A stretch of 53,198 nucleotides of DNA from Opitutaceae bacterium (GTDB lineage: Bacteria; Verrucomicrobiota; Verrucomicrobiia; Opitutales; Opitutaceae). The notes under the pieces are model-generated. The model had not been told where the DNA came from. It ran no database searches and worked only from the letters and a program-made list of their open reading frames with translations. Every line of letters begins with the position of its first letter. Position 1 is the stretch's first letter. Positions 283 to 49,002 of the stretch are shown here, piece after piece. The stretch spans positions 1-53,198 of the forward strand of contig JACMRG010000408.1 of NCBI GenBank assembly GCA_014376585.1. The letters are read 5' to 3'. The translations under genes and the position numbers were made by a program.

Positions 283-346
283 TTTACCGGGCCTTAACAA
301 ATTTCGCCACCGCGCACACAGGGTCTTAACCGCGACGCGGTTTCAT
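283..346 (+). promoter_or_regulatory. Candidate response-regulator site and promoter, copy 1
   Basis: CTTAAC at 293-298, CACACA at 315-320 and CTTAAC at 325-330; a weaker TTTACC lies upstream at 283-288. A -10-like TTTCAT at 341-346 follows the last repeat by 10 bases. The same set of words with nearly the same spacing precedes two other genes in this window (4123-4160 and 7395-7433). Half-sites spaced by about one or three helical turns, and sitting where a -35 element would be, are typical of OmpR/PhoB-family regulators. The position of the -10 supports translation from 366 rather than from the ATG at 345. Binding by the regulator encoded at 6595-7335 is inferred. Confidence 0.55.
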
Positions 347-365
347 GGCGGCACCGTTTTCCGCC

Positions 366-3300
366 ATGCAAAAATTTCTCCCGCTCGTTTTCTCCTTCGG
401 TCTGGTGCTCACCACGCGCGCCCAGAGCGTCACTGATCCGCATGTCACGATGTGGCTCACCGCCAAGTCAGCCCAATATGCGCGCGTCTATGAAACCGTT
501 TCCGACAAAACTTCCGGCAACGCCGTGAGCACATGGCCGCGCTCGGGTCTTACCAATGGTGGCGGCGGTCAGGCGACCAACGCCTACTCCGATGTGCAGC
601 GCGTCGCCTATTCGACGAACTACGTGTATATCCAGACGACCGGGCTCGCGAGTTATACGATGGGAAACTGGTTCACGCCCAACGCAATGACCTACACGTC
701 GTGGCCGACCAACCGCGCGGCGATCCACCGCATCCCGCGCACGCCGTCGATCCCGGCGACCAAACCAAAGAGCGGCGGCAACGGGGGCGTGCTCGTCAAC
801 GGCGTCTTCGTCTGGGCCAACGGTGACGCGCAGTCGTATTCCACGAGCACCGCCACGGTGAGTATGGCGGGCTCCGGGGTGTGGAACCGGCTCGCGGGCG
901 TCGCAGAAGCTTTCAATTTCGACGCGGGCTACGGGCATCAGCCGAACTCCGGGGCTTATCACAATCACATCAACCCGATCGCGCTGCGCTATCAGCTCGG
1001 CGACAACGTGACCTACAGCACTGCGACGAAGACCTACACCGAGGCGGGCACGATCACGCGCCATTCGCCGATCATGGGTTGGGCCAACGACGGTCTGCCG
1101 ATTTACGGCCCCTACGGCTACTCGACCGCCACCGATGCCACCGGCGGCCTGCGCCGGATGGTGAGCGGCTTCGTCAAACGCGACGGCACCGTGAACCTCG
1201 CCGCGACCGGCCGTGCCATGCTGCCGGTATGGGCCGCCAGCGTGCAAGGGATCAGCCCGACGTTGTCCGCGGGTTCCTACGGGCCGAGCACGACGACGAC
1301 TTACGCCGTCGGCGGTGGCGTCACCGGGACTTATTCCATCGGGCTCTTCGCCGAAGATTACGAATACCTCGGCGATCTCGGGAAAACGCAGGGCGTGGAC
1401 TTCGATTTGAACCGGCAAAATGTCCGCTACTGCGTCACCCCCGAATATCCCGGCGGCACTTACGCGTATTTCGTCTGCATCAATGCATCGGGCGCGACGG
1501 TGTTTCCCGATATCATCAACCAAGAATTTTTCGGCACGCCGGTCAACGGCACCGGCACGGTCACGAGCATCAGCGAAACCGTCACAGAATATGTGGATGC
1601 GGGACCAGCGGCGCCGATCACCGTCACCGCCGCTGCTGCGGGCGGCAGCGTGGCACTCAGTTGGAATTCTGCCGAGGCTGCGACTTACAAAGTCGAAGCC
1701 TCCTCCGATAACGCGACGTGGACCACGCTCTCAGCCGCCACGACGAGCGGTGGGCTCACGACGAGCTACACCGCGACTACCGCCACGAATTATTACCGCG
1801 TCACCCTCACCGCCATCGCGAGCTACGACACGGGCGGCACCTACGGCACGGCAGTCGGCAAGACCGCCATCGTGTCCTACGGCGCGGCTGTGACCGCGCC
1901 GACGATCACGACGCAGCCCGCGAGCGTGAGCGTGACGGCGGGTGCGAGCGCAACGTTTACGGTCGCGGCGGGCGGCACAGGCACGCTGAGCTATCAGTGG
2001 AAAAAATCCGGTTCCGCGATCTCGGGCGCCACGGGTGCGAGCTACACGATTGCCACGACGGGGAGCGGCGATGCCGGCAGCTACACCGCGACGGTGACGA
2101 ACTCGGTGGGCTTGGTGACGAGTGCTGCCGCCACGCTCACGGTGAGCGCCGCGGCGACGGCGCCGACGATCACGACCCAGCCAACGAGCCTGAGCGTGAC
2201 GAGCGGCGGCAGCGCGACATTCACCGTGGTGGCGAACGGCACCGCGCCGCTGAGTTACCAGTGGTATAAGGGCGGGGTCGCGATCGCGGGGGCAACCGCG
2301 GCGAGCCATGCGATCACGGGCGCGCAGAGTGCGAATGCCGGCAGCTACACGTGCGTGGTGACGAACTCCGCGGGCTCAGCCACGAGCGATGCCGCCACGC
2401 TCACGGTGAGCGCCGCGGCGACCGCGCCGGCGATCACGACCCAGCCGGCAAGCGCGGCGGTGACGGTGGGGAGCGGCGCGACGTTCACCGTGACCGCGGC
2501 CGGAACATCGCCGCTCAGTTACCAATGGTATAAAGGCGGTGCGGTGATTTCGGGTGCGACGGCGGCGAGTTACACCCTCGCATCCGCGGCAGCGGGTGAT
2601 GCCGGCAGCTACGCGGTGACGGTGACGAATTCCGCCGGCGCCGCGACGAGTAGTGCCGCGACCCTGACGATCAGTGCCGTTGCGGTGGCGCCGAGCATCG
2701 CGACGCAGCCCGTTAGCCTGAGTGTTTTGGCGGGCGGCGCGGCCACCTTCACCGTGGTGGCCAACGGCGCGGCTCCGTTCACCTACCAGTGGAGCAAGGA
2801 CGGCGTCGCGATCAGCGGGGCGACGTCGAGCGCCGTGACTGTGGCGAACGTGCTAGCGGCCAACGGAGGGAACTATGTGTGCGTGGTGACGAATGCGGTC
2901 GGCTCCGCCACCACGAATGCGGCGGGACTGCTGGTCGCGGCCGTGCAGGCCAGCGCGCCGATGATCACGACGCAGCCGGTAAGCGCGAGCGCGGCGACGG
3001 GCGCGAGCGCGACCTTCACGATTGCGGCGAACGGCGCGGCGACGCTGAGCTACCAATGGCGCAAGGATGGCACGGCGATCACGGGAGCGGCGGGGGCCAG
3101 CTACACGATCACTGCCGCGCAAAGTGGCGACGCGGGCGCCTATGCTTGCGTGGTAAGCAACAGGGTCGGATCGGCCACGAGCGCGGTGGCGACGTTGACG
3201 GTGAACGTGGTTGGGACTTCCTCGGCACGCCTCGTCAACCTCGCCGTGCGGGCGCGGGTGGGCGGCGCCGGGGGCAAGCCGATCACGGGTTTCGTGCTCG

Positions 3301-4022
3301 TGGGCACGGGTGCGGGCAAGCCGATGATCATCCGCGCGGCGGGCCCGGCGCCCACGGGATTTGGGCTGGCGGGCGCACTGGCCGACCCGTAACTGCAACT
3401 CTGGTCGGACAGCGGGATGGTCGCGGCCAACGACAATTGGCTCTCGGGCGATGCGGCGGCGATGAACGCGGTCGGGGCGTTTCCGCTCACGGTGGGCAGT
3501 GCCGATGCGGGCATCGTCACCACGCTCGCCGCGCGCGGCTCCACGACGCCGGTTTCCACGCCGGGAAATGGCACGGGGATCACGCTGATCGAGTGCTACG
3601 ACGGCGCGCCCAACGACACGAGTGTGCGCCTCGTCAACGCATCGGCGCGAGCGTATGTCGGGACGGGTGAGGATGTGCTGATCCCGGGTTTTGTGATCAC
3701 CGGCGAGGGCACGGTGCGGCTGCTCGTGCGGGCGGTGGGGCCGGGGCTCACGGCGTTCGGCGTGCCGGGTGCGCTGGCCGATCCGCAGCTGACGCTCTAC
3801 AAATCCAGCGAGGTGCTCGCCACCAACGACAATTGGTCGAGTGCGGCCAATCCCGGCGAGATCGTGAGCGCGACGGCGGCGGCGGGCGGTTTCGCGCTCG
3901 TGGGCGGGAGTAAGGATGCGGCGCTGGTCGTGACACTCGGCGCCGGTGCCTACACCGCGCTGGTGAGCGGAGTGGGGAACACGACGGGAACGGCGCTGGT
4001 GGAAATTTACGTGCTGCCGTGA
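366..4022 (+). pseudogene. YHYH-domain surface protein with five Ig-like repeats, interrupted by an in-frame TAA
   Basis: Exported protein with signal peptide (residues 1 to about 20), a YHYH domain (motif here Y198-H-N-H201), a fibronectin-like stretch (about residues 410-510), five Ig-like repeats of 85-90 residues each opening with a ITTQP-type motif (nucleotides about 1900-3210), and two copies of a module with RLVN, LADP, NDNW and ALVE motifs. An in-frame TAA at 3390-3392, in the LADP-Q position of the first module, ends translation after 1008 residues. The same frame stays open and clearly homologous to 4022, where the full 1218-residue product would end. One C-to-T change in a CAA codon explains it. 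The ATG at 366 is preferred over 345 because of the signal peptide and promoter spacing. YHYH domains have no settled biochemical role; metal binding is suggested by the His motif and neighbours only. Confidence 0.8.
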
Positions 4023-4183: not shown

Positions 4184-6499
4184 ATGAACCGCCTTCCCAT
4201 TTTTCTCGCCGCGATGGTTGTCACGGCTTCCGTCGTCCGCGCCGCCGATCCTCAGCTCGAATCGTGGCAGACCGGGAGTTCCCGACGCTACGCGCGCCTC
4301 TACGAAAGCGACGCCGCCAAGGCGGCAGGAACCTCCGTCATCACGTGGAGCCGTGGCCAAGCCGCGCAGACCTCGCCCACTTACGCGGGCGTGATCCAAA
4401 TCTCGTCCTCTGCGAGTTGGGTCTATCTGCGCACGACGGGCCTCGGGACCCATGTGATGGGGCCGTGGTATATCAACGCCGCGCACACGGTGAATTTCCC
4501 CAACTTCCCGGCAAACACCGGCGCGATTTTCCGTTTTCCCCGCACGCCGACGATCCCGACGACCAAGACGCCGACCGGTCTCGCTGCGATCGGCTTCTTC
4601 GTGGACGGGGTCGCGGCGTTCGATAACCGCGATGCGTTTTCCTACGTGACGGCGAGCGGCACCGACGCCGGCCCCACCAACGGACTCCGCGGTGACGGTG
4701 TGTGGAACCGTGAGGCCTACGCGAACGAGGGCGTGACCTTCGATGCGGCCTTCGCCCATCAGGCCGGCACGAACTACCACTATCACGCGAACACTCCGGC
4801 GCTCCGCTTCCAACTCGGGGACAATGTGGACTACAATGCCACCACCAAGACCTACGCCGAAAAATCCACTCTGCCGACCGCGCACTCGCCGATCCTCGGC
4901 TGGATGGCCGACGGGTTGCCGATTTACGGACCGTATGGCTACGCCTCACCGATGAGCCCCGCGAGCGGCGTGCGCCGCATGACCACCGGCTACGTGAAAC
5001 GTGATGGCGCCAACGGCACCACCAACCTGTCTTCGACGGGCCGCATCACCATTCCCGTCTGGGCCACGCGGGCGCAGGGCCGCGGGGCGACTCTGCTTTC
5101 CACGCTCTACGGTCCGGCGGTCGGCACGGCTTACCCGCTCGGGAACTATATTGAAGACTACGACTACCTCGGCGACCTCGGAAAAACGCAGGGCGCGGAT
5201 TTCGATCTCAATGACTGCAACGTGCGCTTCTGCGTGACGCCCGAGTTTCCCGCCGGCACCTACGCCTACTTCCTCACCATCGAGGCCGACGGCACACCGA
5301 AATTCCCCAACACGGTCGGCCGGTGGTTTTTTGGCAATCCCACGGGCGGATCGGTCGCTGCGATCAATGAAACCGTGACGGAATACGTGCGCGCCAGTCA
5401 GGCCTCGGCGATCAGCGTCACGGCGACGAGCGCCATGGGCACGGTGACGATCAGGTGGACCTCGGCCGAGGGCGCGACCTACAAGATCGAGACGTCCGCC
5501 GATGCGACGACATGGAGCGTGCTGAGCGGCGCGAGCGCGGTCACGAGCAGCGGCGGCGACACGACGAGTTTTTTGACGGCCGTGGCGGCGACGAACTATC
5601 GCGTGACGCTGACGGCGCTGGCGACCTATGACACGCGTGGAGCGGGCGGCCTGTCGGGGGTGGGAAACTCAGCCTCGGCGACAGTCGCAGTCGGCGCGGC
5701 GGGCACCGCCCGGCTGGTCAACATCGCCTCCCGCGTGGCGCTCGGCGGCGCGGCCGGCACGCCGATCGCGGGCTTTGTCTTGGGTGGCGTCGGCACGAAG
5801 GCGATGTTGGCCCGTGCGGTCGGGCCGACGCTGGCGAATTTCAATGTGAGCGGCGTGCTGGCCGATCCGCGCCTCGGTCTTGTGAGCGGCACGACGACGG
5901 TTGCGAGCAACGACAACTGGCTCGCGGCCGATGCCGCCACGATGAGCGCCGCCGGGGCCTTCGCGCTTGCGGCCGGCAGCAAAGACGCGGCGCTCGTCGC
6001 GACGCTCGGCGCCGGCGGCTACACGTTGCCCGTGACCGCGACGGACGGCGGGAGCGGCGTTGCGTTGCTGGAAGTTTACGACGCGGCGAGCTCGACCACG
6101 CTCAACGTCGTGAATGCCTCGACGCGCGCCTACGTGGGCACGGGGGACGCGGTGCTGATCCCGGGCTTCGTCGTGGCCGGCACGGGTTCGCTGAGACTGC
6201 TCGTTCGCGCGGTCGGCCCCGCGCTGGCGAATTTCGGCGTTGCGGGCGTGCTCGCCGATCCCGCGCTCACGCTTTACAGCGGCACGAAGGCCGTGGCGAC
6301 TAACGACAACTGGTCCTCGGGAGCGGACGCGACCGAGCTGTCTGCGGCGGGGGCCGCCGTCGGTGCCTTTGCGCTGACGACGGGAAGCAAGGACGCCGCG
6401 ATTCTGACAACGCTGCCGGCCGGAGCTTACACTGCGGTCGTGAGCGGGGTCGGGAGCACGACTGGAACGGCGCTGGTGGAAATTTACGTGATACCGTGA
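4184..6499 (+). CDS. YHYH-domain exported protein
   Basis: A 771-residue paralogue of the gene at 366-4022, intact. It has a signal peptide (residues 1 to about 20, ending VVRA), a YHYH domain with the canonical Y198-H-Y-H201 motif at exactly the same residue number as in the paralogue, a conserved YGPYGY segment near residue 250, a fibronectin-like stretch (about 405-500), and two C-terminal modules (about 507-640 and 645-771) with RLVN/LNVVN, GFV, RAVGP, LADP, NDNW and ALVEIY motifs. It lacks the five Ig repeats of its neighbour. The protein is probably periplasmic or surface-bound; no enzymatic residues can be assigned. The shared promoter motif links it to the regulator at 6595-7335 and to the MbnP-MbnH gene, so a metal-related (copper) role is a reasonable inference, not shown. 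Confidence 0.85.
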   Translation: MNRLPIFLAAMVVTASVVRAADPQLESWQTGSSRRYARLYESDAAKAAGTSVITWSRGQAAQTSPTYAGVIQISSSASWVYLRTTGLGTHVMGPWYINAAHTVNFPNFPANTGAIFRFPRTPTIPTTKTPTGLAAIGFFVDGVAAFDNRDAFSYVTASGTDAGPTNGLRGDGVWNREAYANEGVTFDAAFAHQAGTNYHYHANTPALRFQLGDNVDYNATTKTYAEKSTLPTAHSPILGWMADGLPIYGPYGYASPMSPASGVRRMTTGYVKRDGANGTTNLSSTGRITIPVWATRAQGRGATLLSTLYGPAVGTAYPLGNYIEDYDYLGDLGKTQGADFDLNDCNVRFCVTPEFPAGTYAYFLTIEADGTPKFPNTVGRWFFGNPTGGSVAAINETVTEYVRASQASAISVTATSAMGTVTIRWTSAEGATYKIETSADATTWSVLSGASAVTSSGGDTTSFLTAVAATNYRVTLTALATYDTRGAGGLSGVGNSASATVAVGAAGTARLVNIASRVALGGAAGTPIAGFVLGGVGTKAMLARAVGPTLANFNVSGVLADPRLGLVSGTTTVASNDNWLAADAATMSAAGAFALAAGSKDAALVATLGAGGYTLPVTATDGGSGVALLEVYDAASSTTLNVVNASTRAYVGTGDAVLIPGFVVAGTGSLRLLVRAVGPALANFGVAGVLADPALTLYSGTKAVATNDNWSSGADATELSAAGAAVGAFALTTGSKDAAILTTLPAGAYTAVVSGVGSTTGTALVEIYVIP

Positions 6500-6594: not shown

Positions 6595-7335
6595 TCACTC
6601 CGGGTTGACCATCATGTAGCCGGCGGAGCGCACGGTGCGGATGAAGCGGGGCGATTGAGCGTCGTCGTGGAGTTTTTTGCGGAGCGACGAGATATGCACG
6701 TCGATCGAGCGGTCGAACACGTCGTAGTTGCGGTCGCGGGCCTCATCGAGGAGCGCCTCGCGGGATTTGATGCGGCCCTTGGCCTTCGCGAGGCTGGCGA
6801 GCAGATCGAATTCGACGGGCGTGAGCACCAAGGGTTCGGCGCCGAGCACGGCGGAGCGGGCGTCGAGATTTACGCGGAGTTCGCCGACGACCAGCTCCTT
6901 GGGCGGGGCTGCTGGTCCGGCGTCGGGGGCGGCGTTGAGCGCGCTGCGGCGGAGCACGGCACGGAGGCGGGCGAGGAGTTCGCGGGTGGAAAAGGTTTTC
7001 GGGAGATAATCGTCGGCGCCGATTTCGAGGCCGACGATGCGGTCCATCTCGTCGCCGCGGGCGGTGAGCATGAGCACGGGCACGGTGGATTTTTGGCGGA
7101 TGCGTTTCAGCACTTCGAAGCCGTCGAGGCCGGGGAGCATCACATCGAGGATGACGACATGGGGCGCGGTCGCGCCGGGTGTGGTGGCGCGCTCGACGCC
7201 TTCGGGACCGGTGTGGGCGGCGGTGACGGCGAAGCCGAGCGGCTCAAGGTAGGAGGTGACGAGACGGCAGAGCTTTTTGTCGTCGTCGATCATCAAGAGC
7301 CGGGTCTGACCGGGGATGGGGGCGTCGGCATTCAT
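6595..7335 (-). CDS. OmpR/PhoB-family response regulator
   Basis: A 246-residue transcription factor of a two-component system. The receiver domain spans about residues 12-128, with the acidic pocket IDDD (16-19), phosphoacceptor D64 in VVILDVMLPG, conserved T91 and K113 (LPKTF). The C-terminal winged helix (about 145-243) has the family pattern LTPVEFDLL...SREALLD...RSIDVHISSLRKKL. Its strand-mate downstream is the kinase fragment at 1-242. The start at 7335 lies 49-98 bases from CTTAAC repeats in the gap shared with the divergent MbnP-MbnH gene, so it probably regulates itself and that gene. CpxR/CopR-like specificity (envelope or copper stress) is inferred from the neighbours. Confidence 0.9.
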   Translation of the reverse strand: MNADAPIPGQTRLLMIDDDKKLCRLVTSYLEPLGFAVTAAHTGPEGVERATTPGATAPHVVILDVMLPGLDGFEVLKRIRQKSTVPVLMLTARGDEMDRIVGLEIGADDYLPKTFSTRELLARLRAVLRRSALNAAPDAGPAAPPKELVVGELRVNLDARSAVLGAEPLVLTPVEFDLLASLAKAKGRIKSREALLDEARDRNYDVFDRSIDVHISSLRKKLHDDAQSPRFIRTVRSAGYMMVNPE

Positions 7336-7455: not shown

Positions 7456-9234
7456 ATGCGAGTGAGCGCCGTCGTCTTATTTTTGCTCTGGGCCCGACTG
7501 GGCGCAGCGGAGCTCACGCTGGAGTGCCAGCTGCGTTGGCGCGGCGCACCCCTGACTGTGCCGTCGGTGGAGTTGGCGGGGGCGGAAGGCCGGGTGCTGC
7601 GGGTCACCCGTTTTGCTGCACTGGTGTCCGGCGTGGAGTTGCGGCGGGCGGACGGCGGTGCGGTGCAGCTCGACGGGCAATACGGTTTCATCGACGCGGA
7701 GACAGGGCGGCTGGCGATGACGTTGCGCAACGTGCCGGAGGACAACTACACGGGGTTGGAATTCCAAATCGGCGTGCCGCCCGCGATAAATCACGCTGAT
7801 CCGGGCCAGTGTGTGGCGCGCCATCCGCTCAACCCGATCGTGAACGGGCTGCATTGGGGGTGGTCAGGCGGCTATGTCTTTGCGGCGATCGAGGGGCGCT
7901 GGCGGGCGGCGGGGCATGATGCGGACGAGAGGAAAGCGGAACGGGGTTTTTCGTATCATCTGGCGACGGATGCGCGGCTGATGCGGGTGCGCTTTGCCGC
8001 GGCGGTGGAGATCGCGGGGCCGACGACGGTCAGGCTGACGCTGGATTTGGGGAAAGTCTTGGGCGCGCAAAAGATCGCGGCGGACGGCGGCAGTGAGACG
8101 ACGCACTCGGGCAAGGACGATCTGCTCGCCGTGGTGCTGGCGAAGGCGACGGAGCGGGCTTGGTTTTTTCTGGAGGCGGTGCCGATGGTAGGTGCGTTGG
8201 CGGAGCCGGAACGGCGCGTTAGGGATAACGCGCCCTACCTCGGAATCGGCACGCCGCTGGCGTTTGCGGTGCCGACGGGATTTCCGCAGCCGGAGTTGCC
8301 CGCGGACAATCCGCTCACCGTGGAAGGTGTGGAACTTGGGCGCAGGCTTTTTGGCGACCGTCGGCTATCGGCACGCGACACGCAGAGCTGTGCGACGTGT
8401 CACCGGCAGGAACTGGCGTTTTCCGAAGCGCGGGCGCTGAGCATCGGGGCGGACGGGACGCAGGGCACGCGTAATTCCATGCCGCTTTTCAATCTCGCGT
8501 GGAGCCCGAGCTACGCCTGGGACGGCGCGAAGCCGCAGTTGCGCGACCAGGCCATCGCGGCGCTCACCGGCGAATTGGAAATGCATGCTGATCCGGCCAA
8601 AGTCGCGGCGACGCTCGGGCGTGACCCGGGGGTGAGACAGGATTTCGCGGCGGCGTTTGGCACGCCGGAAGTGACCGTGGAGCGCATCGGATTGGCCCTC
8701 GAGCAGTTCATGCTGACGCTCGTTTCGGCCGATTCGAAATTTGACCGGGCGCTGCGCGGAGCGGTGGAACTTAGCGACGAGGAGAAAAAGGGGTTTGAGC
8801 TGTTCGCCAGCGAATATGATCCCGCACGGAGCCGACGCGGGGCGGATTGTTTTCACTGTCACGGCGGGGCGCTGTTTACGGATTACGGTTTTCGCGACAA
8901 TGGTCTTGGGCTCACACGAGGCGAGGAGGCACGATCGGGGGTGACGGGACGGGCGACGGACGCGGGAAAATTCAAGACGCCCTCGCTGCGCAACGTCGCC
9001 GTGACGGCGCCCTACATGCACGACGGCCGGCTGGGCACGTTGGAAGAGGTGGTGGCACACTACGACCACGGTGTCAGCCGCACGGCGACGCTCGATCCGA
9101 ACCTCGCGAAACATCCCGACGCGGGCCTACAGCTCACGATGGAGGAGCAACGGTCGCTCGTGGCGTTTTTGCGGACGCTTACGGATACGAAGCTGGAACG
9201 GGCCGGCGAAACGTTGGCGTCCGGCGGGCTCTGA
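7456..9234 (+). CDS. MbnP-MbnH fusion: copper-binding domain joined to di-heme peroxidase-like enzyme
   Basis: A 592-residue periplasmic protein, start chosen at the ATG before a clear signal peptide (residues 1-18). Residues about 19-240 match the MbnP family, including the aromatic segment N130-G-L-H133-W134-G-W136 and a following GYVF...EG motif. Residues about 265-592 match MbnH and other bacterial di-heme cytochrome c peroxidases, with two heme-binding motifs, C312-ATC-H316 and C465-FHC-H469, and the typical distal TPSLRNVAVTAPYMHDG segment. In characterised systems MbnH oxidises a Trp of MbnP to kynurenine, which helps bind copper, and the two are separate adjacent genes. Here one chain holds both. 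The upstream sites tie it to the divergent response regulator. No methanobactin genes are seen, so general copper handling is the likeliest role. Confidence 0.8.
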   Translation: MRVSAVVLFLLWARLGAAELTLECQLRWRGAPLTVPSVELAGAEGRVLRVTRFAALVSGVELRRADGGAVQLDGQYGFIDAETGRLAMTLRNVPEDNYTGLEFQIGVPPAINHADPGQCVARHPLNPIVNGLHWGWSGGYVFAAIEGRWRAAGHDADERKAERGFSYHLATDARLMRVRFAAAVEIAGPTTVRLTLDLGKVLGAQKIAADGGSETTHSGKDDLLAVVLAKATERAWFFLEAVPMVGALAEPERRVRDNAPYLGIGTPLAFAVPTGFPQPELPADNPLTVEGVELGRRLFGDRRLSARDTQSCATCHRQELAFSEARALSIGADGTQGTRNSMPLFNLAWSPSYAWDGAKPQLRDQAIAALTGELEMHADPAKVAATLGRDPGVRQDFAAAFGTPEVTVERIGLALEQFMLTLVSADSKFDRALRGAVELSDEEKKGFELFASEYDPARSRRGADCFHCHGGALFTDYGFRDNGLGLTRGEEARSGVTGRATDAGKFKTPSLRNVAVTAPYMHDGRLGTLEEVVAHYDHGVSRTATLDPNLAKHPDAGLQLTMEEQRSLVAFLRTLTDTKLERAGETLASGGL

Positions 9235-36833: not shown

Positions 36834-39464
36834 ATGAGCCCACGCACCTACCTTCCGCCGCGCCTTACCGTCGCGTTCGCGGCCCTCGCGCTCGCCACCG
36901 CGGCGTCCGCCCAAACCGTGACCCCCGTCGCCAAAGACGAGGCCGTGAGCCTCGAGGCTTTCGTCACCATCGGCTCGCGCTTCAACCAGCGCACCGCCAC
37001 CGAATCCGCCGTCCCCATCGACGTCATCACCGAGCGTGAAATCCGCCAGGGCGGCTACACCGAGACCGCCAAGATTCTCCAGGCGCAGATCCCGTCGTTC
37101 AACAATCCGCATCCGACCACGCCCGACGGCAACACGCACATCCGCTCCGTCACGCTGCGCGGCCTCTCGCCCCATCAGACGCTCGTCCTCGTCAACGGCA
37201 AGCGCCGGCACACCTCCGCTTGGGTCAACACCGGCGGCACCATCGGCCGCGGCGCCGTTTCCACCGATCTCAACGCCATCCCGTCCACCGCGCTCGGCCG
37301 CATCGAAGTGCTTCGTGACGGCGCCTCCGCGCAATACGGCTCCGACGCCATCGCGGGCGTGATCAACCTCGTCCTCCGCGAAGACCTCGGCTTCGGCGCG
37401 AGCGGCACTTACGGCGCGACCAAGGAAAGCGGCGGCGAAGTCTGGGAAGCATCCGTCGAGTCCGGCTTCAAACTCGGCGACGGCGGTTATTTCCACAGCA
37501 CGCTTTATCACCGCGACCGCAACGCCACCAACAGCGCGCTGCCCGACACCCGCCAGTTCTACTTTGGCACCAACGCCACCACCGGTGCCGTCACCGCCAA
37601 CAACGCCGCCTTCGCCTCCGGCACCACGAACCCGCCCGCCAATACCCTCCTTGATCCGCGTGAAGCCTCGGTGAACCGCAACGTCTGGCGCTACGGAGAC
37701 GGCGACCTCGTCGAAAACACGTTTTTCTTCAACGCCGGCGTCCCGCTCCAGCCCAAAAAGGCGCTCGAATTCTACGCCTTCGGCGGCATCGGCCGCAGCG
37801 AGGCCGTCTCCAACGCGTCCTTCCGTCGTCCCGCCGACAACAACAACGTCCGCGCCCTTTACCCGAACGGCTTTCTGCCCTTCGTTGATACCGACAGCAC
37901 CAACCTCTCCCTTGCCGCCGGCCTTCGCGGCAAAGCCAGCACGTGGGACTGGGACCTCAGCCAAGAAATCGGCAACAACAAGCTGAAATATTTCACGCAC
38001 AACACGCTCAACGCCTCGCTCGGCACCGCCAGCCCTACGCGCTTCTACAACGGCCGCCTCGAGTTCACGCAGGCCGTTACCAATCTGGATCTCAAGACCA
38101 GCCTCGATGGCGGTCTGCCCGCGCCCGTGAAGGTCGCCACCGGGGCCGAGTTCCGTGCCGACTCCTACAAGATTGGCTCAGGCGGGCCCGACTCCTCCCG
38201 CGGCGGCGGCGTCGCCGTCCTCGACGGTCCGTCCATCGGCGCCGTCGCTACGGTCGGCGCGCAAGGCTTCGGCGGTATCGGCCCGCGCGACGCTCAGGAC
38301 GTCGATCGCCACAGCTACGCGTTCTACGTGGACGCCGAAAATGATCTCACGAAAACCCTCCGTGTCTCCGCCGCCGCCCGCTTCGAGGACTACAGCGATT
38401 TTGGCACCACGTTTAACGGCAAGGGCGCCGCGCGCCTCGCGCTCTTAGGCGGCCTCGCCGCGCGCGCCTCCGTGAGCACCGGCTTCCACGCTCCTGCGCT
38501 CCAGCAGCAATCCTTCGGCTCCACCAGCAGCCGCACCGACGCCAACACCAACACGATCATCCTCTCGCGCGTTTTCCCCGTCGGCGATCCCGCGGCCCGC
38601 GCCCTCGGAGCAACCAAGCTCGACGCCGAAAAATCCATCAACTGGACCGGCGGCTTCGCGTATGAAAACGGCGGCCTCGCCGCGACGGCGGACTTTTATC
38701 AGATCGAAATCAATGACCGCATCTTCCTCTCCAGCCAGTTCACCGGCACCGCCGTCCTGAACTACCTCACCGCCCAAGGCATCGCCGGGGTCGAGGGCGC
38801 GCGCTTCTTCACAAACGCCGCCGACACCAAGACCCGTGGCTTCGACCTCACGCTGCGTGATCGTTTCTCCCTCGGCCCACTCGGCAAACTCACGGTGACC
38901 GCCGGCTACAATTACAACACCACCACGCTCACCCGCGTGCGCTCCACGCCCGCTTCCGTGACCGCGCTCGGTATCACCACGCCGCTCTTTGACATCACCG
39001 AACGCATCCGCGCCACCCGCGGCCAGCCGCGCACCAACGCCCAGCTCGCCCTCGCGTGGGACTACCAGCGCTTCTCCTTCCTCGCCCGCGGCGTCCGCTA
39101 CGGCGACTACGAGGCCGTCGCGCTCACCAACCTCTCCGCCGCTCAAGTCGCGCTATTCTCCGCGGGTTCCAACTTCCGCACGCTGCCCACCGAGACCATC
39201 GGCGCCGCCGCGGGCAATGCGGACGTGATCGGCAAGTTCGATGCGCGCATCCTCACCGACTTGGATTTCGCCTATCGCCTGAACGACCGCTTCACCCTCT
39301 CCGTCGGCGCGAACAACGCCTTCAACATTCACCCGCCCGAGGTCATCCGCAGCAACCCGCAGCGCCTCGGTGCCGATGCCGGCGGCGTGTTCCGCTACAG
39401 CGAGTTCTCGCCGTTTTCCTATAGCGGCGCGTTTTACTACACGCGTCTCACGGTTAAATTCTAA
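36834..39464 (+). CDS. TonB-dependent outer-membrane receptor
   Basis: An 876-residue receptor that imports a bulky or scarce nutrient using TonB energy. It has a signal peptide (MSPRTYLPPRLTVAFAALALA...SAQ), a short TonB-box-like VSLEAFVTIGSR segment (about 40-52), a plug domain (about 55-180) with SVTLRGLSPHQTLVLVNGKRRH and the IEVLRDGASAQYGSDAIAGVINLVL signature, then a 22-strand barrel ending in Phe. The substrate cannot be read. Its place after the sulfate and cysteine genes suggests an organosulfur compound, inferred only from position. Confidence 0.93.
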   Translation: MSPRTYLPPRLTVAFAALALATAASAQTVTPVAKDEAVSLEAFVTIGSRFNQRTATESAVPIDVITEREIRQGGYTETAKILQAQIPSFNNPHPTTPDGNTHIRSVTLRGLSPHQTLVLVNGKRRHTSAWVNTGGTIGRGAVSTDLNAIPSTALGRIEVLRDGASAQYGSDAIAGVINLVLREDLGFGASGTYGATKESGGEVWEASVESGFKLGDGGYFHSTLYHRDRNATNSALPDTRQFYFGTNATTGAVTANNAAFASGTTNPPANTLLDPREASVNRNVWRYGDGDLVENTFFFNAGVPLQPKKALEFYAFGGIGRSEAVSNASFRRPADNNNVRALYPNGFLPFVDTDSTNLSLAAGLRGKASTWDWDLSQEIGNNKLKYFTHNTLNASLGTASPTRFYNGRLEFTQAVTNLDLKTSLDGGLPAPVKVATGAEFRADSYKIGSGGPDSSRGGGVAVLDGPSIGAVATVGAQGFGGIGPRDAQDVDRHSYAFYVDAENDLTKTLRVSAAARFEDYSDFGTTFNGKGAARLALLGGLAARASVSTGFHAPALQQQSFGSTSSRTDANTNTIILSRVFPVGDPAARALGATKLDAEKSINWTGGFAYENGGLAATADFYQIEINDRIFLSSQFTGTAVLNYLTAQGIAGVEGARFFTNAADTKTRGFDLTLRDRFSLGPLGKLTVTAGYNYNTTTLTRVRSTPASVTALGITTPLFDITERIRATRGQPRTNAQLALAWDYQRFSFLARGVRYGDYEAVALTNLSAAQVALFSAGSNFRTLPTETIGAAAGNADVIGKFDARILTDLDFAYRLNDRFTLSVGANNAFNIHPPEVIRSNPQRLGADAGGVFRYSEFSPFSYSGAFYYTRLTVKF

Positions 39465-43352: not shown

Positions 43353-44150
43353 TCAGGTCGCGACAGCCGATTTCACGCGGTCGGCGGCGGACCACTTGAA
43401 AAAACAAACACCGAAGGCCGCGAGCGCGACGGAGAGGCCCATCAGCTTCATGCCCACGCCGGCGAGCAGTTGATCCTCGGCGGCGCTAAAGGTGGCGAAG
43501 AGGCGCGGGGCGTATTCGTAGGTGGGGTAGAGGATATCGTCGGAGAACGTGATGTAGGCGAAGACGGGGGTCATCGCAATGAGCACACCGAAGAGGTAGA
43601 TCATGCGGGCGCCGTGGGAAATCGGCGGCAGCGCACGCGAGGGGCTGAGTAGCGGCCACCAATAGAGCAGGCCGGAGCCGAAAAACATGAGATGTTCGAC
43701 GACGTGGATCGTCTTATTTTGGAGCGCCCAGTCGTAGGCGACGGGGGCGTGCCAGAGACTGATGACGAGGGTGTAAAGCAGGCCGCAAATCAATGGTTGC
43801 GTGAGAAAGCGCAGAGGCCGGCGAAGAGAGGGCCGGGCGAGCACGGGATCGACCATCCACGCGGGCAGCCCGCGGAGGAAGAGGATGGCGGCAGGGTAGA
43901 TCAGCAACTGATGTTGCAGCATGTGGACGCTGAAGAGAAAACGTTCGCCGATCTGGTCGAGCGGGGAGCCGACGGCCAGGTAGAAGATCACGAGGGCGGC
44001 GTAGAATTGCGCGGCGTGGCCGCGAGGGAAGGCCGTGCCGGGAGCCAGACGCGGGCGCAGGGGACCGGCGAGCATCGCGTAGAGCCAGCCGAGGAAAACG
44101 AGCCCACCGACGAGGTGGGGTTCATTGTGCCAGTGGCGCCAGTCGATCAT
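43353..44150 (-). CDS. ctaG: Cytochrome c oxidase assembly protein CtaG (caa3 type)
   Basis: A 265-residue membrane protein with about seven hydrophobic segments, of the CtaG family linked to caa3 oxidases in Bacillus, needed for CuA/CuB-type copper insertion or assembly. Family features are the Trp/His-rich start (WRHWHNEPHLVGG), VHMLQHQLLIYPAAILFLRGLPAW, the SLWHAPVAYDWAL motif and VVEHLMFFGSGLLYWWPLL, whose His residues may hold copper. It is the last gene of the oxidase operon but is preceded by a terminator-like hairpin whose T-run touches its start codon. Confidence 0.92.
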   Translation of the reverse strand: MIDWRHWHNEPHLVGGLVFLGWLYAMLAGPLRPRLAPGTAFPRGHAAQFYAALVIFYLAVGSPLDQIGERFLFSVHMLQHQLLIYPAAILFLRGLPAWMVDPVLARPSLRRPLRFLTQPLICGLLYTLVISLWHAPVAYDWALQNKTIHVVEHLMFFGSGLLYWWPLLSPSRALPPISHGARMIYLFGVLIAMTPVFAYITFSDDILYPTYEYAPRLFATFSAAEDQLLAGVGMKLMGLSVALAAFGVCFFKWSAADRVKSAVAT

Positions 44151-44153
44151 GGG

Positions 44154-44181
44154 AAAAAAGAAAGGCGGCCCGGAGGCCGCC
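44154..44181 (-). terminator. Terminator-like hairpin between ctaF and ctaG
   Basis: On the minus strand a perfect 7-base stem (GGCGGCC 44175-44181 with GGCCGCC 44164-44170, loop TCCG) is followed by TTTCTTTTTT ending 3 bases before the ctaG ATG. It should lower ctaG expression relative to ctaCDEF. Confidence 0.7.
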
Positions 44182-44207
44182 GCGGATAATGGAGAACTTG
44201 GCGAGCC

Positions 44208-44558
44208 TCAGGGCGTCGCGGTGATCGGAATGCCATCTTTCACCATGAAAAGCGCCACGAGCGCCCAAGCGGTGCCGGCGGCCAGCACGAGCCCGATAAA
44301 AAACATGATCGTGCAAAAGGGCTTATCCCAGCGCAGGTGCATGAAGTAGAAGATCACATACATGAACTTCACGACGGAGAGCACAACGAGCGCCGTGACG
44401 ATGATCCACTTGGCGAAGGGCAGGTAGATGCCGACGATCTCGACGCCGGTGATGACGGCGAGGAGCATGGCGATGTTCACGTAGATCTGAAACTTGCTGT
44501 CGTCGTGGCCGTGATCGGCATGGCCGGCGGCGGGGGCGTGGGAGGCGGGTGCGCTCAT
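44208..44558 (-). CDS. ctaF: Cytochrome c oxidase subunit IV (CtaF/CoxD-like)
   Basis: A 116-residue membrane protein. A His-rich head (HAPAAGHADHGHDD) precedes three hydrophobic segments: YVNIAMLLAVITGVEIVGIYL, WIIVTALVVLSVVKFMYVIFYFMHLRW and MFFIGLVLAAGTAWALVALF (parts shown). The VKFMYVIFYFMHLRWD block is that of the subunit IV/CyoD family, which helps assemble the CuB centre. It begins 9 bases after subunit III ends. Confidence 0.9.
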   Translation of the reverse strand: MSAPASHAPAAGHADHGHDDSKFQIYVNIAMLLAVITGVEIVGIYLPFAKWIIVTALVVLSVVKFMYVIFYFMHLRWDKPFCTIMFFIGLVLAAGTAWALVALFMVKDGIPITATP

Positions 44559-44567
44559 GGTGATTTC

Positions 44568-45407
44568 TTAAAGGTATTCGAGGAGATAGACGGCGGTGAA
44601 GATGACGATCCAAACAATATCAACGAAGTGCCAGTAGAGGCCCATCGATTCGACGTCGATCGCGTTGCGTTCGTCGAAGTTCACTACGCCGCGTGGGCGG
44701 GCGAAGAAGATACTGGCGACGATACAGCCGACCAAACCGGCCAACATCGCGAAGTGTCCACCGAAGAACGAGCCGACGGTGGCGCCGCTGTGGAGGGTGT
44801 GGACGAGACCGAGCACGGAAAACATCGCGAGGAGAATGCCGCCGATGATGGCGAGGACGTGCATCAAATTGCCGACAAACCAACCTGCGTTGCGGCTGGT
44901 CTCCGGTGGCTGGAACGAACGGACATACATCAGGATCAGCCACAACACACCGATGGCGACGTGGGTGCCGTGCGTGCCGGTGAGGGTGAAGAACGTCGTG
45001 CCGAGCATGCTGTTGGTGATCGTCATCTTCTTGATTTCGACGAATTCCTTGAACTCATAGACTTGGCATCCGAGGAAGATCGCGCCGAAGAAAATGGTCG
45101 TGAGGATCGACCAGCGCATGCTCTTGAGATTGCCCTTCTGGATCGCCGTGACGGCGAGGGCCATCATGAGCGACGACATCAGCAGGATGAACGTGGAGAA
45201 CGACGTGAGCTCGATGCTGAAGATTTCCTTCGGCGACGGGGCGCCGGGCATCGGATGCAGGCGGTAGATCAGGTGGGTCGAGATGAGCGCGCCAAAGAAC
45301 ATGCAGTCCGAGGCCAGAAACGTCCACATGAGGAGTTTCTTGTTGGGGATCCCGGTCGAAGTGCTCGGATCGTGGTGATGGTCGATGGGGCCAGCGTGAC
45401 TGCTCAT
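44568..45407 (-). CDS. ctaE: Cytochrome c oxidase subunit III
   Basis: A 279-residue membrane subunit of the heme-copper oxidase with about five to seven transmembrane helices. Typical blocks are NKKLLMWTFLASDCMFFGALIS, FSTFILLMSSLMMALAV, GTTFFTLTGTHGTHVAIGVLWL (the HGxHV motif) and the closing GLYWHFVDIVWIVIFTAVYLLEYL. The segment HALHS-type TLHSGATVGSFFGGHFAML is an extra helix relative to short forms. It lies between subunits I and IV in the standard order. Confidence 0.94.
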   Translation of the reverse strand: MSSHAGPIDHHHDPSTSTGIPNKKLLMWTFLASDCMFFGALISTHLIYRLHPMPGAPSPKEIFSIELTSFSTFILLMSSLMMALAVTAIQKGNLKSMRWSILTTIFFGAIFLGCQVYEFKEFVEIKKMTITNSMLGTTFFTLTGTHGTHVAIGVLWLILMYVRSFQPPETSRNAGWFVGNLMHVLAIIGGILLAMFSVLGLVHTLHSGATVGSFFGGHFAMLAGLVGCIVASIFFARPRGVVNFDERNAIDVESMGLYWHFVDIVWIVIFTAVYLLEYL

Positions 45408-45465
45408 ATTAGAGAGGAAAGGTATTGAAGAGGCGGTAGGGCGATCAGGTGGGACGTGGCGCCGC

Positions 45466-47439
45466 TTAATGTCTGGCGGCGTGCTTGTCGGAGGAATCGT
45501 GGCCTTCCTCGCCGAGGTGGAGATGGTAGCCTTCGTTGCCCTCGAGGGCCCAGAAGTAGATGCCGATCAGCATGACTGCGCCGCCCATCATCGCGGTGCC
45601 GATTTTCTTACCCCAGAAACCGGGGCTGGGATCGTGGTCGATGACGGCGATGCCGATGGCGGCGATCAGGAGACCGAGACTGGCGACAAACGGATAGATC
45701 GACTGAAACGGCATGTGGATGCCGCCGTGATCGGCCTCGGCCTTGGCGTGCTCGGCCTCTTCCTTTGCGATTTGAGCTTGGTTTTGTTTAATATACCAAA
45801 AGGCGTCGCGGGCGTGGACCGTGGGGATCACGCGGTAGTTATACTCGGGCGGGGGATTGGGCAGGCTCCACTCCAGAGTGCGGGCGTCCCACACATCTTT
45901 GCCGACTTTTTCGCCCTTGAAATAGGTGTAGGCCATCACCGCGAAGTAGATGAAGATACCTACGCCGAGGATGAGCGCACCGATGGTGGCGACGAAGTTC
46001 GCGGTGTTCCAACCGAGGTTGGCGTCGTAGGTGTAGGTGCGGCGGGGCATACCGTTCAGGCCGAGGAAGTGCATCGGGAAAAACGTGACGTTGAAACCTA
46101 CGAAAATGACCCAGAAGGACAGTTTGCCCCAGAACTCGCTGACCTTGCGGCCGAACATGAGCGGGAACCAGTAGTGGATGCCGGCGAGCAACGCGAAAAT
46201 CGAGCCACCGATGAGCACATAATGGAAGTGGGCGATGACGAAATAGCTGTCCTGCTGCTGCGCGTCGGCCGGGGCGGCGGCGTGCATGACGCCGGAGAAG
46301 CCGCCGATCATGAACATCCAGACGAAGCCGAGGGCGAACATCATGGGCGTGCGCATCGAAATGTGGCCGCCCCAGAGGGTGCCGATCCAGTTAAATATCT
46401 TAACGCCCGTGGGCACGGCGATGGCCATGGTGGCGAGGGAGAATGCCGCGGTGGCCATGGTGCCCATGCCGGTGGTAAACATGTGATGGCTCCACACGGA
46501 GAAGCCGAGAAAGCCAATGGACGCGCCCGAGAACACCACGATCGGGTAACCGAAGAGAGGCTTGCGCGAAAACGTGGGGAGAATTTCCGAAACGATGCCC
46601 ATCGCGGGCAAAATCAGGATGTAAACCTCGGGATGTCCGAAGACCCAGAAGAGGTGCTGCCAGAGAATGGGCATGCCACCGTTGGAGACCTCGAAGAAGT
46701 TCGTGCCGAAAAGACGGTCCATCATCAGCTCGACGAGCGCGATGGTGATGAAGGGAAAGGAGAGGACGATCAAGAAGGCCGTGATGAGCGTCATCCACGT
46801 GAAGACCGGCAGGCGCATCATGGTCATGCCGGGCGCGCGCAGGTTGATGATGGTGACGATAAAGTTCAGCGAGGCGGCGATGGAGGCGACGCCGAGGAGC
46901 TGGAGGCCCATCACCCACATGTCGATCGAGTGGTCGGGTGCGAAGGTCTTCGAGGTGAGCGGGGCATAGCCGACCCAGCCGCCGTCAGGCGCGCCGTCGT
47001 GCATAAACCAACCGAGGTTAATGATGATCGCGCCGGCGACGAAGGTCCACAGCGAGAAGGCATTCAGGCGGGGGAAGGCGACGTCGCGCGCACCGATTTG
47101 GAGCGGCATCATGAAATTGAAAAAAGCGGCCGAGAGCGGCATGACGGCGAGGAAGATCATCGTCGTGCCGTGCATCGTGAACATCGTGTTGTATTGCTGC
47201 GCGGTCAGCACGGTGCCGTTGGGGAACATCAGCTGGAGGCGGATGAGCAACGCCTCAACGCCGCCGACGAGGAAGAAAAACAACGCAAAAATACCGTAGA
47301 GGAACCCGATCTTCTTGTGGTCAACCGTCGTGAGCCAGCTCACGAGCCCGGTCTGCGCCGTGGGGCGCCAGAAGACCGATGATTTAGCCGGAGCCGCGCC
47401 GTCTTTGACGTGGAGATCTGATTTGAGAATGGCGTCCAT
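45466..47439 (-). CDS. ctaD: Cytochrome c oxidase subunit I
   Basis: A 657-residue catalytic subunit reducing oxygen to water while pumping protons, with twelve core transmembrane helices plus a C-terminal pair (PFVASLGLLIAAIGIAVI, MGGAVMLIGIYFWAL). The heme and CuB site is visible: MHGTTM near residue 90 for the low-spin heme His, FGHPEVYILILP with CuB His and the cross-linked Tyr, HHMFTTGM, and the heme a3 region HFHYVLIGG. K-channel Tyr of the HPEVY motif marks an A-type oxidase. The start at 47439 is 10 bases after the ctaC stop. Confidence 0.97.
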   Translation of the reverse strand: MDAILKSDLHVKDGAAPAKSSVFWRPTAQTGLVSWLTTVDHKKIGFLYGIFALFFFLVGGVEALLIRLQLMFPNGTVLTAQQYNTMFTMHGTTMIFLAVMPLSAAFFNFMMPLQIGARDVAFPRLNAFSLWTFVAGAIIINLGWFMHDGAPDGGWVGYAPLTSKTFAPDHSIDMWVMGLQLLGVASIAASLNFIVTIINLRAPGMTMMRLPVFTWMTLITAFLIVLSFPFITIALVELMMDRLFGTNFFEVSNGGMPILWQHLFWVFGHPEVYILILPAMGIVSEILPTFSRKPLFGYPIVVFSGASIGFLGFSVWSHHMFTTGMGTMATAAFSLATMAIAVPTGVKIFNWIGTLWGGHISMRTPMMFALGFVWMFMIGGFSGVMHAAAPADAQQQDSYFVIAHFHYVLIGGSIFALLAGIHYWFPLMFGRKVSEFWGKLSFWVIFVGFNVTFFPMHFLGLNGMPRRTYTYDANLGWNTANFVATIGALILGVGIFIYFAVMAYTYFKGEKVGKDVWDARTLEWSLPNPPPEYNYRVIPTVHARDAFWYIKQNQAQIAKEEAEHAKAEADHGGIHMPFQSIYPFVASLGLLIAAIGIAVIDHDPSPGFWGKKIGTAMMGGAVMLIGIYFWALEGNEGYHLHLGEEGHDSSDKHAARH

Positions 47440-47448
47440 GGTGGGAAA

Positions 47449-48696
47449 TTACTTGAGGCTTTGGAGGTAGGCGACGAGGGCGACTTCGTCTTCGGCGGTG
47501 AGCTTGATGTTATTGTCGACATAACCCTTGGCCATCTTGTTGCCGGGTTTGACGGCGCCGGGGTTGTGAATCCAGCGCTGGAGTTGCTCGGGGTTATTTT
47601 CGATCACGCCAGCGGCGAGGGTGGAGCGGGCGCCGATGTGGGTGAGATTCGGTCCGCTGATGCCGACCGCACCGTGGCCGCGAACCTCATGGCAGGACAC
47701 GCAGGCCTTGGTGGAAAAGAGCGCTTTGCCTTGGGCGATGAGAGCGGGATTTTCGCCTTTCTCTGGAAACTGTTTGGCCTTCCACGCATCGAGGGGGGCG
47801 ACGTCAAATTTATCCGAGATGCCCGTCTCGTTCTGCTTAAAGGTGCGGAGCGCAGCAAACTGGGCCTTGGGCGCGTTGGAATCGGCGAGCTTCGGCGCGG
47901 CGACGTTGCGGGCGGGAGCGGTCTGCTGGCTGAGCCAATCGTTGAAATCCTTCGGCCCGAGCGCCACCACACGGAAACGCATGACGGCGTGCGAATCGCC
48001 GCAATACTCGGCGCATTGACCCCAGTAGTAACCGGGCTGGTCGGCTTCGAGCCACAGGAAATTCGCGCGGTTCGGGATCATGTCCACCTTGCCTGCGAGC
48101 TTGGGCACCCAGAAGCTGTGGATGACATCGGCGCCGCGCACATTGATGCGCACGGGGCGGTTGGCGGGGATAACGAGTTCGTTGCCCGTGGTCAGGGCGC
48201 CAGCACCGGCAATCTGCTCGCTGGGGTATTCAAATTTGAACCACCACTGATAACCGGTGGCCGTGATCTCGTAGAGATCGGCCTTCCGGTCTTCGGGGAC
48301 ATCGTAGGTGTAGAAGATGCCCTTGAGGGTGGGGATGGCGATGATGACGAGCGCCAGCACGGAGGCACCGATGAGGCCCACCTCGATCAGTGGGTTGCCA
48401 TGACCTTGCTCGGGCGGGACCGCTTTTTCCTCTGCAGCGGTGCGGGCACGGAATTTCCACGTGGCGTAGGCGAGCACGCCGCCAACGAGAATGAAAATCA
48501 CGAGGGTGACCCAGCATGTGACATAAAACACTTCCAACTGACTCCGCGCCACCGGGCCGGCCACCTTGATCGTCGATTGGTGTCCGTCCATACGCCACCA
48601 ATTGTAGTCACAGCCCGACAACAGGGCGAGGGTGCCCAGCGCGAGGCCGGCGAGGCCCCAACGGGCGAAGGATGAAGGAAGTGTGGACAGGCGCAT
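47449..48696 (-). CDS. ctaC: Cytochrome c oxidase subunit II with fused cytochrome c (caa3 type)
   Basis: A 415-residue subunit. A lipoprotein signal with lipobox LLSGC29, then two transmembrane helices (about 57-80 and 105-125), a periplasmic cupredoxin domain with the binuclear CuA ligands in CAEYCGDSHAVM (about residues 228-239), and a C-terminal cytochrome c domain with CVSCH and a distal Met (probably in GNKMAKGYVD). The fused heme makes it caa3, able to receive electrons directly. ATG at 48696 is chosen over 48771 because it gives the lipoprotein signal. First gene of ctaC-D-E-F-G. Confidence 0.96.
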   Translation of the reverse strand: MRLSTLPSSFARWGLAGLALGTLALLSGCDYNWWRMDGHQSTIKVAGPVARSQLEVFYVTCWVTLVIFILVGGVLAYATWKFRARTAAEEKAVPPEQGHGNPLIEVGLIGASVLALVIIAIPTLKGIFYTYDVPEDRKADLYEITATGYQWWFKFEYPSEQIAGAGALTTGNELVIPANRPVRINVRGADVIHSFWVPKLAGKVDMIPNRANFLWLEADQPGYYWGQCAEYCGDSHAVMRFRVVALGPKDFNDWLSQQTAPARNVAAPKLADSNAPKAQFAALRTFKQNETGISDKFDVAPLDAWKAKQFPEKGENPALIAQGKALFSTKACVSCHEVRGHGAVGISGPNLTHIGARSTLAAGVIENNPEQLQRWIHNPGAVKPGNKMAKGYVDNNIKLTAEDEVALVAYLQSLK

Positions 48697-49002
48697 GGTG
48701 CGTTTCAGGAATTTATTTAATGGCCAGAGCGATCGCCAAACTCTGCCGAGAGTCCGCGAACACACAGGCATTTCAAGTCATAATACTGCATTGCAGGAGA
48801 CTTTGCGGTGGGGTGAGGTGCGGGGCAACTCAGGCGCGGTTGAAAGCCTCAGCTATTAACACCGCTCGCAGTCATATTAGGGGCGAATTAGCGCCGGGCG
48901 CGGGCGCCGGGGTATCACGAGTTTGCTCAACCCGAAGTCGCTGGGCTAATTTTATGGCTTCGAGTTTGCCAGCGACAGCGGGGGGCATGAGCCTCCTCCG
49001 AC
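48697..49002. promoter_or_regulatory. Divergent promoter gap between ctaC and the azurin-like gene
   Basis: 306 bases without a gene, AT-richer than its surroundings in 48700-48800. It must hold the promoters of both divergent units. AATTTATTTAATGG at 48709 onwards sits close to the ctaC start. No CTTAAC pair of the type found at the left end was seen, and no other repeat stands out. Confidence 0.35.

What the first reader, a model, noticed from the sequence alone, without database searches (positions are those of the whole stretch)
7456..9234. Natural fusion of MbnP and MbnH in one chain
Seen: one open frame with a single signal peptide carries an MbnP-like domain with the H133-W134-G-W136 segment and a di-heme enzyme domain with two CXXCH motifs. 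Known: MbnH oxidises a Trp of its separate partner MbnP to kynurenine in copper-binding systems. Inferred: the fusion ties substrate and enzyme at 1:1 and might modify itself in cis or modify other chains. I do not recall such a fusion being characterised.
Basis: partly seen in the sequence, partly recalled or inferred. Interest (0 to 1): 0.78.

Follow-up and report, generated by a model that had tools for sequence, protein, structure and literature searches.

The report
Class-wide one-chain MbnP–MbnH fusion protein
A copper-binding protein and the heme enzyme thought to modify it, normally two separate proteins, are joined into one in this bacterium and in essentially every relative of its class that has them, which makes a natural self-modifying copper protein that could be tested directly.

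Summary
Window 7456–9234 (+) is one uninterrupted 592-residue frame with one signal-like start, an MbnP domain (PF20243, E 1.9e-29) containing H133-W134-G-W136, and a MauG/MbnH di-heme domain (closest solved structure MbnH 6e1c). It is not a sequencing error: 48 of 50 MbnP matches in the class sit in frames of 563 aa or more, and all 78 readable of the best 80 GTDB loci are fused. The fusions form one clade.

Best reading: the heme domain oxidises Trp134 of its own chain to kynurenine, completing a periplasmic Cu(I) site. Kynurenine, copper and cis reaction are inferred, not shown. New variant of a known kind.

The parts
7456..9234 (+). MbnP-MbnH fusion gene, 592 aa
7456..7509 (+). signal-like N-terminus, residues 1-18 (by eye)
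   Evidence: helix 2-12 in the model
7510..8199 (+). MbnP domain, about residues 19-248
   Evidence: Pfam; 7l6g Z 17.2
7852..7863 (+). H133-W134-G135-W136 (WxW motif; W134 is the predicted kynurenine precursor)
7957..7959 (+). H168, predicted copper ligand
   Evidence: invariant; aligned with the HLGS His of separate MbnP
8104..8106 (+). H217, predicted copper ligand at the position of the CMS Met of four-Cys MbnP
   Evidence: invariant
8281..9204 (+). MbnH/MauG-type di-heme domain, about residues 276-583
   Evidence: 6e1c Z 32.1
8389..8403 (+). first heme motif CATCH, residues 312-316
8518..8520 (+). W355 of the WDG motif, aligned with the CCP FWDGR Trp
8848..8862 (+). second heme motif CFHCH, residues 465-469
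9061..9063 (+). Y536, aligned with MauG Tyr294 (predicted axial ligand of the low-spin heme)
9100..9117 (+). NLAKHP, residues 549-554: N549, K552, H553 near-invariant in fusions and lost in the stand-alone relative
4184..6499 (+). YHYH-domain protein, 771 aa, conserved neighbour
345..3392 (+). second YHYH-domain protein with immunoglobulin-like repeats; in-frame stop at 3390-3392
6595..7335 (-). OmpR-type response regulator, divergent from the fusion

Best explanation
The gene encodes an exported one-chain MbnP-MbnH protein. The C-terminal di-heme domain, a MauG/MbnH-type enzyme with a predicted His/Tyr low-spin heme, is oxidised by hydrogen peroxide to a high-valent state and withdraws electrons from Trp134 of the MbnP domain docked against it on the same chain. 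Trp134 is converted to kynurenine, which completes a Cu(I) site made of His168, His217 and kynurenine 134, perhaps with His133. The protein then works in periplasmic copper handling, together with a YHYH-domain protein encoded beside it. Shown here: the fusion, its conservation and single origin, domain folds, motif alignments and the gene neighbour. Inferred: the kynurenine, the copper, the choice of cis over trans, and the physiological role.
For: Both domains identified by profiles and by fold: MbnH 6e1c Z 32.1, MbnP 7l6g Z 17.2. WxW motif, H168 and H217 invariant in 36 of 36 fusions not chosen by motif. Y536 aligns with MauG Tyr294. Separate pairs have MbnP directly before MbnH in the same order. 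Single origin of the fusion. Domain spacing nearly constant, W134 to first CXXCH about 172 residues. pTM 0.89 over both domains; CCP superpositions begin at model residues 134-136, so the WxW loop touches the heme domain in the model. The relative that lost the MbnP half lost nine fusion-invariant residues of the heme domain in two short stretches. A separate Deinococcus pair that also has His at the Met position lies beside copC and copD.
Against: No chemistry was measured. NCBIfam curated cut-offs for both families are not reached. The copper ligands are inferred from alignment at about 20% identity. The stand-alone heme relative is a single case. No known copper gene lies directly beside the fusion in the window.
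Confidence: 0.62

Rival explanations
1. The heme domain oxidises the Trp of another chain (homodimer or domain-swapped trans reaction). The fusion only keeps the two activities at equal amounts and in one place.
For: MbnH and MauG act on separate partners (established for these families); the linker near 251-260 is the least confident internal part of the model.
Against: Confident relative placement of the two domains in one chain (pTM 0.89) and contact of the WxW loop with the heme domain in the model. A monomer model cannot exclude a dimer.
Confidence: 0.2
2. The heme domain is mainly a peroxidase or electron-transfer domain and the MbnP domain a plain copper store; W134 is not oxidised.
For: Same superfamily as cytochrome c peroxidases.
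Against: Tyr536 stands in the place of MauG Tyr294; W134 and W136 invariant without selection; closest structure is MbnH.
Confidence: 0.1
3. The main substrate or client is the neighbouring YHYH protein: the fusion matures it or hands copper to it.
For: YHYH domain in 60 of 81 fusion loci, always on the same strand; both YHYH domains of the genome lie here; invariant His and Asp residues in YHYH.
Against: At least 13 fusion loci with long upstream flanks have no YHYH domain in reach; no known function or fold match for YHYH. It is compatible with the best explanation rather than an alternative to the cis reaction.
Confidence: 0.25
4. A sequencing or assembly error joined two genes.
For: The genome is a draft of 435 contigs.
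Against: The same fusion appears in many independent genomes, including single-contig ones.
Confidence: 0.005

Closest known systems
MbnP of Methylosinus trichosporium OB3b (PDB 7l6g; PF20243, TIGR04052)
   Same: Fold (Z 17.2), WxW motif, conserved His of HLGS, operon order before MbnH
   Different: Fused to the enzyme; four-Cys set missing; Met of CMS replaced by invariant His217; His before the first Trp; below the TIGR04052 cut-off
MbnH (PDB 6e1c; TIGR04039)
   Same: Di-heme MauG-like fold (Z 32.1), Tyr at the low-spin axial position, two CXXCH
   Different: Part of a larger chain; below the TIGR04039 cut-off; residues such as R363, E416, L420, P456, D464, R525, N549, K552 special to fusions
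MauG (TTQ biosynthesis)
   Same: Tyr294 equivalent, di-heme fold (Z about 30), protein Trp as presumed substrate
   Different: Acts on methylamine dehydrogenase, a separate protein; curated model cut-off not met (173 of 444 bits)
MopE/CorA with SACCP/CorB (Methylococcus capsulatus, Methylomicrobium album)
   Same: Predicted copper site chemistry: two His plus kynurenine, Cu(I), with a di-heme CCP-like partner (PMC3912023)
   Different: Separate proteins; MbnP is described as not markedly similar in sequence to MopE or CorA (PMC3621798)

Membership tests
MbnP (PF20243) | Pfam gathering score | tested here: met
   103 bits against 27
MbnP (PF20243) | MbnP fold | tested here: met
   7l6g Z 17.2, rmsd 3.6 over 215, next unrelated chain Z 5.5
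MbnP (PF20243) | WxW motif | tested here: met
MbnP equivalog, four-Cys type (TIGR04052) | curated score cut-off | tested here: not met
   44.7 of 140 bits
MbnP equivalog, four-Cys type (TIGR04052) | four-Cys set and His/Met copper ligands | tested here: not met
   Cys set absent, Met position is His217
MbnP (PF20243) | kynurenine from the first Trp, and Cu(I) binding | not testable with these tools
   needs mass spectrometry and titration
MbnH (TIGR04039) | curated score cut-off | tested here: not met
   227 of 363 bits, though it is the best NCBIfam match
MbnH (TIGR04039) | di-heme MauG-like fold with two CXXCH | tested here: met
   6e1c Z 32.1
MbnH (TIGR04039) | Tyr in place of the CCP Met ligand | tested here: met
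   Y536 aligned with MauG Tyr294 and with the 6e1c Tyr
MbnH (TIGR04039) | encoded with MbnP | tested here: met
   same chain
MauG (TIGR03791) | curated score cut-off | tested here: not met
   173 of 444 bits
MauG (TIGR03791) | location in a methylamine dehydrogenase (mau) cluster | tested here: not met
   neighbours are YHYH proteins, a response regulator, a protein with only a weak glycosyl hydrolase 65 C-terminal match and an SMP-30-like protein
Bacterial cytochrome c peroxidase | Met axial ligand on the high-potential heme | tested here: not met
   Tyr536 aligns with MauG Tyr294
MopE/CorA | two His plus kynurenine copper site | not testable with these tools
   predicted from alignment only
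MopE/CorA | same protein family | tested here: inconclusive
   CorA and MopE are not among the structure matches listed, which excludes nothing; PMC3621798 calls MbnP not markedly similar in sequence

The most novel reading that the evidence does not exclude
The fusion and the YHYH protein form one uncharacterised exported copper module of Verrucomicrobia: a self-modifying protein builds a two-His/kynurenine Cu(I) site in cis and hands copper or an oxidising equivalent to a YHYH metalloprotein whose predicted fold has no match among solved structures.
Probability: 0.25. Interest if true: 0.75.

Novelty: new variant of a known kind. Interest (0 to 1): 0.52.

Why it matters
MbnH acting on MbnP, like MauG on its substrate, is a two-protein reaction in which enzyme and substrate must find each other. 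A natural one-chain version with nearly constant domain spacing gives a system in which long-range electron withdrawal, kynurenine formation and copper loading could be followed without a docking step. It also predicts a copper site of two His and kynurenine in the MbnP fold, the chemistry of MopE/CorA in a different family, and ties kynurenine copper proteins to the uncharacterised YHYH family across a bacterial class.

Tried and rejected
Sequencing error or missed stop: rejected. Ordinary cytochrome c peroxidase: rejected as best reading. Proteobacterial fusion: the MAG titled 'Proteobacteria' (L076) is placed in the window's own phylum by the genome tool, since the same genomes come up. Planctomycetota and Armatimonadota as further homes: apart from the seed genome none of about 293 and 200 sampled genomes had MbnP, so these are sporadic and probably transferred. 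Plasmids: no fusion seen; the four best places are separate genes. Literature: no paper on such a fusion in the held library; the PNAS 2021 MbnP paper is not held and the 2019 MbnH paper did not turn up, so whether they mention fusions is unknown to me. Co-variation between the domains gave cross-domain pairs around residues 350-370, but with an effective 83 sequences and uncorrected clade structure it is not used as evidence. YHYH fold: none of the 197 chains compared reached Z 2, best Foldseek E 1.9. A search with a MauG sequence for a Paracoccus MauG brought none among the listed rows; Tyr294 was settled through PDB alignments instead.

Full report
Observation. Window 7456–9234 (+) is one frame of 592 codons from an ATG. 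Residues 1–18 read as a signal peptide by eye. Pfam places MbnP at 19–210 (E 1.9e-29) and CCP_MauG from 290. NCBIfam places the MbnH model at 282–580 with E 2.8e-67 but below its curated cut-off, and the MbnP_like_WxW model well below its cut-off. Phmmer against the PDB gives MbnH 6e1c first. The genome has one copy.

Not an error. In 57 related genomes, full-length or nearly full-length matches occur at 70, 62, 61, 45, 45, 44, 43 and 42% identity in unbroken frames. Over 286 genomes of the class, 45 have MbnP, and 48 of 50 places over the cut-off lie in frames of 563 aa or more. Translations of the loci show HWxW followed by two CXXCH and PYMHDG in the same frame. A scan of 84,980 GTDB genomes with the MbnP half found 287 relatives. 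Of the best 80, all 78 that are not cut by a contig end carry both halves in one frame: 75 by the full motif test, three with both heme motifs and a variant of PYMHDG. That scan used the pattern HWxW[QST]GG[YF][IV], so conservation of those letters in L051–L130 is by construction. The 36 sequences were gathered by Pfam or by whole-protein search and show H133, W134 and W136 invariant without that bias. Outside the phylum the fusion is sporadic: a few Planctomycetota and one Armatimonadota genome carry it, and sampling of those phyla found no other.

Origin. Separate pairs in Trichormus, Deinococcus radiodurans, Pseudoalteromonas and Methylocystis have MbnP directly before MbnH with gaps of 78, 55, -8 and -4 nt, so the fusion joins an operon pair in its existing order. 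A tree of the heme halves puts all sampled fusions on one side of a branch with SH-aLRT 99. A stand-alone heme half in the single-contig genome G016, which has no MbnP match, lies inside the fused clade on a long branch, so it looks like a secondary loss of the MbnP half. It has lost E453, P456, D464, H467, G470, D547, N549, K552 and H553, positions kept in 98% or more of 104 fusions. These are candidates for contact with the MbnP domain. This rests on one sequence.

MbnP half. Residues 16–248 of the model superpose on 7l6g at Z 17.2, and no unrelated chain exceeds Z 5.5 for that part. In the alignment with separate four-Cys MbnP proteins the HLGS His matches H168, and the Met of CMS matches H217. 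H168 and H217 are invariant in 69 of 69 fusions. The separate Deinococcus MbnP proteins also have His at the Met position. The four Cys are missing, and the residue before W134 is His, where Methylocystis has Ala. The published abstract, as I recall it (paper not held), names His, Met, solvent and kynurenine as the MbnP copper environment, with the first Trp of WxW modified. On that basis the fused form should have two His plus kynurenine. That is the site chemistry of CorA, with H64, H114, Kyn62 and water (PMC3912023).

Heme half. The best structural match is 6e1c (Z 32.1, rmsd 2.1 over 302 residues), then MauG at about 30. Y536 aligns with MauG Tyr294; the Y294H entry 3orv scores lower than the other MauG entries in the same search, as it should if that position is matched. 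W355 of WDG aligns with the CCP FWDGR Trp.

Geometry. AlphaFold2 on 69 fusions gives pLDDT 89.3 and pTM 0.89, so the relative placement of the domains is predicted with confidence apart from a linker near 251–260. Many CCP superpositions begin at model residue 134, 135 or 136, paired with the first residues of the CCP chain, and run to about 580. In the model the WxW loop therefore lies against the heme domain where CCPs have their N-terminus.

Neighbours. With a profile built from the window's own YHYH domain, 60 of 81 fusion loci hold a YHYH domain within the fetched flank, always on the same strand and upstream in 57. Eight of the 21 loci without one have under 1.3 kb of upstream sequence. 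The window's genome has exactly two YHYH domains, both here. For phage YHYH domains others predicted a metal-dependent hydrolase with a His triad and an Asp (PMC7824862). The domain here keeps H174, H181, H183, H216 and several Asp/Glu, folds with pLDDT 95 and has no PDB match. A response regulator cluster stands near the fusion in 13 loci, a histidine kinase in 16, and a galactose-oxidase-like protein with a MauG-type tail in 6.

Mechanism. Shown: fusion, conservation, single origin, folds, motif positions, neighbour. Inferred: H2O2-driven oxidation of W134 to kynurenine in cis; Cu(I) bound by H168, H217 and the kynurenine; a role in periplasmic copper handling with the YHYH protein. Trans reaction between chains is the main rival and cannot be excluded from sequence.

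Novelty. The two activities are known as a pair. What I have not seen described is the one-chain form as the norm of a whole class, the exchanged copper ligand and the YHYH link. The fusion is probably already visible as a domain architecture in public databases, and the two key papers could not be read, so I rate it a new variant of a known kind.

Noticed in passing
345-4022 (+): The first YHYH gene has an in-frame stop at 3390-3392; the same frame continues to 4022 with the rest of a C-terminal domain that is intact in the second YHYH gene. Nonsense mutation, assembly error or real truncation.
   Followed up: partly
4184-6499 and relatives (alignment): The YHYH domain has a confidently predicted fold (pLDDT 95) with no match among solved structures, and invariant His and Asp/Glu residues that look like a metal site.
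   Followed up: partly
L114:4162-8859 and five other loci: A large protein with a galactose-oxidase-like part and a MauG-type cytochrome tail follows the fusion in six loci; frames of about 2,400-2,550 aa with a short MauG-like match lie about 7 kb from the fusion in G024 and G030.
   Followed up: no
L010/L164 (G016): Stand-alone heme half nested within the fused clade, with its own signal-like start and no YHYH or MbnP: secondary loss of a domain.
   Followed up: partly
L194, L196, L197: Sister group of di-heme enzymes of about 515 aa without MbnP but with an added C-terminal stretch that looks like EF hands by eye, about 43% identical to the G016 stand-alone heme half.
   Followed up: no
43356-49515: A caa3-type cytochrome oxidase cluster (CtaG, subunits IV, III, I, II) and a plastocyanin-like copper protein about 35 kb downstream; TonB receptor at 36834-39461. 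No evidence of a link to the fusion.
   Followed up: partly
L131:8877-10028, L136:2896-4056: Public annotation calls several MbnH-type di-heme enzymes 'methanobactin export MATE transporter MbnM', apparently a naming error.
   Followed up: no
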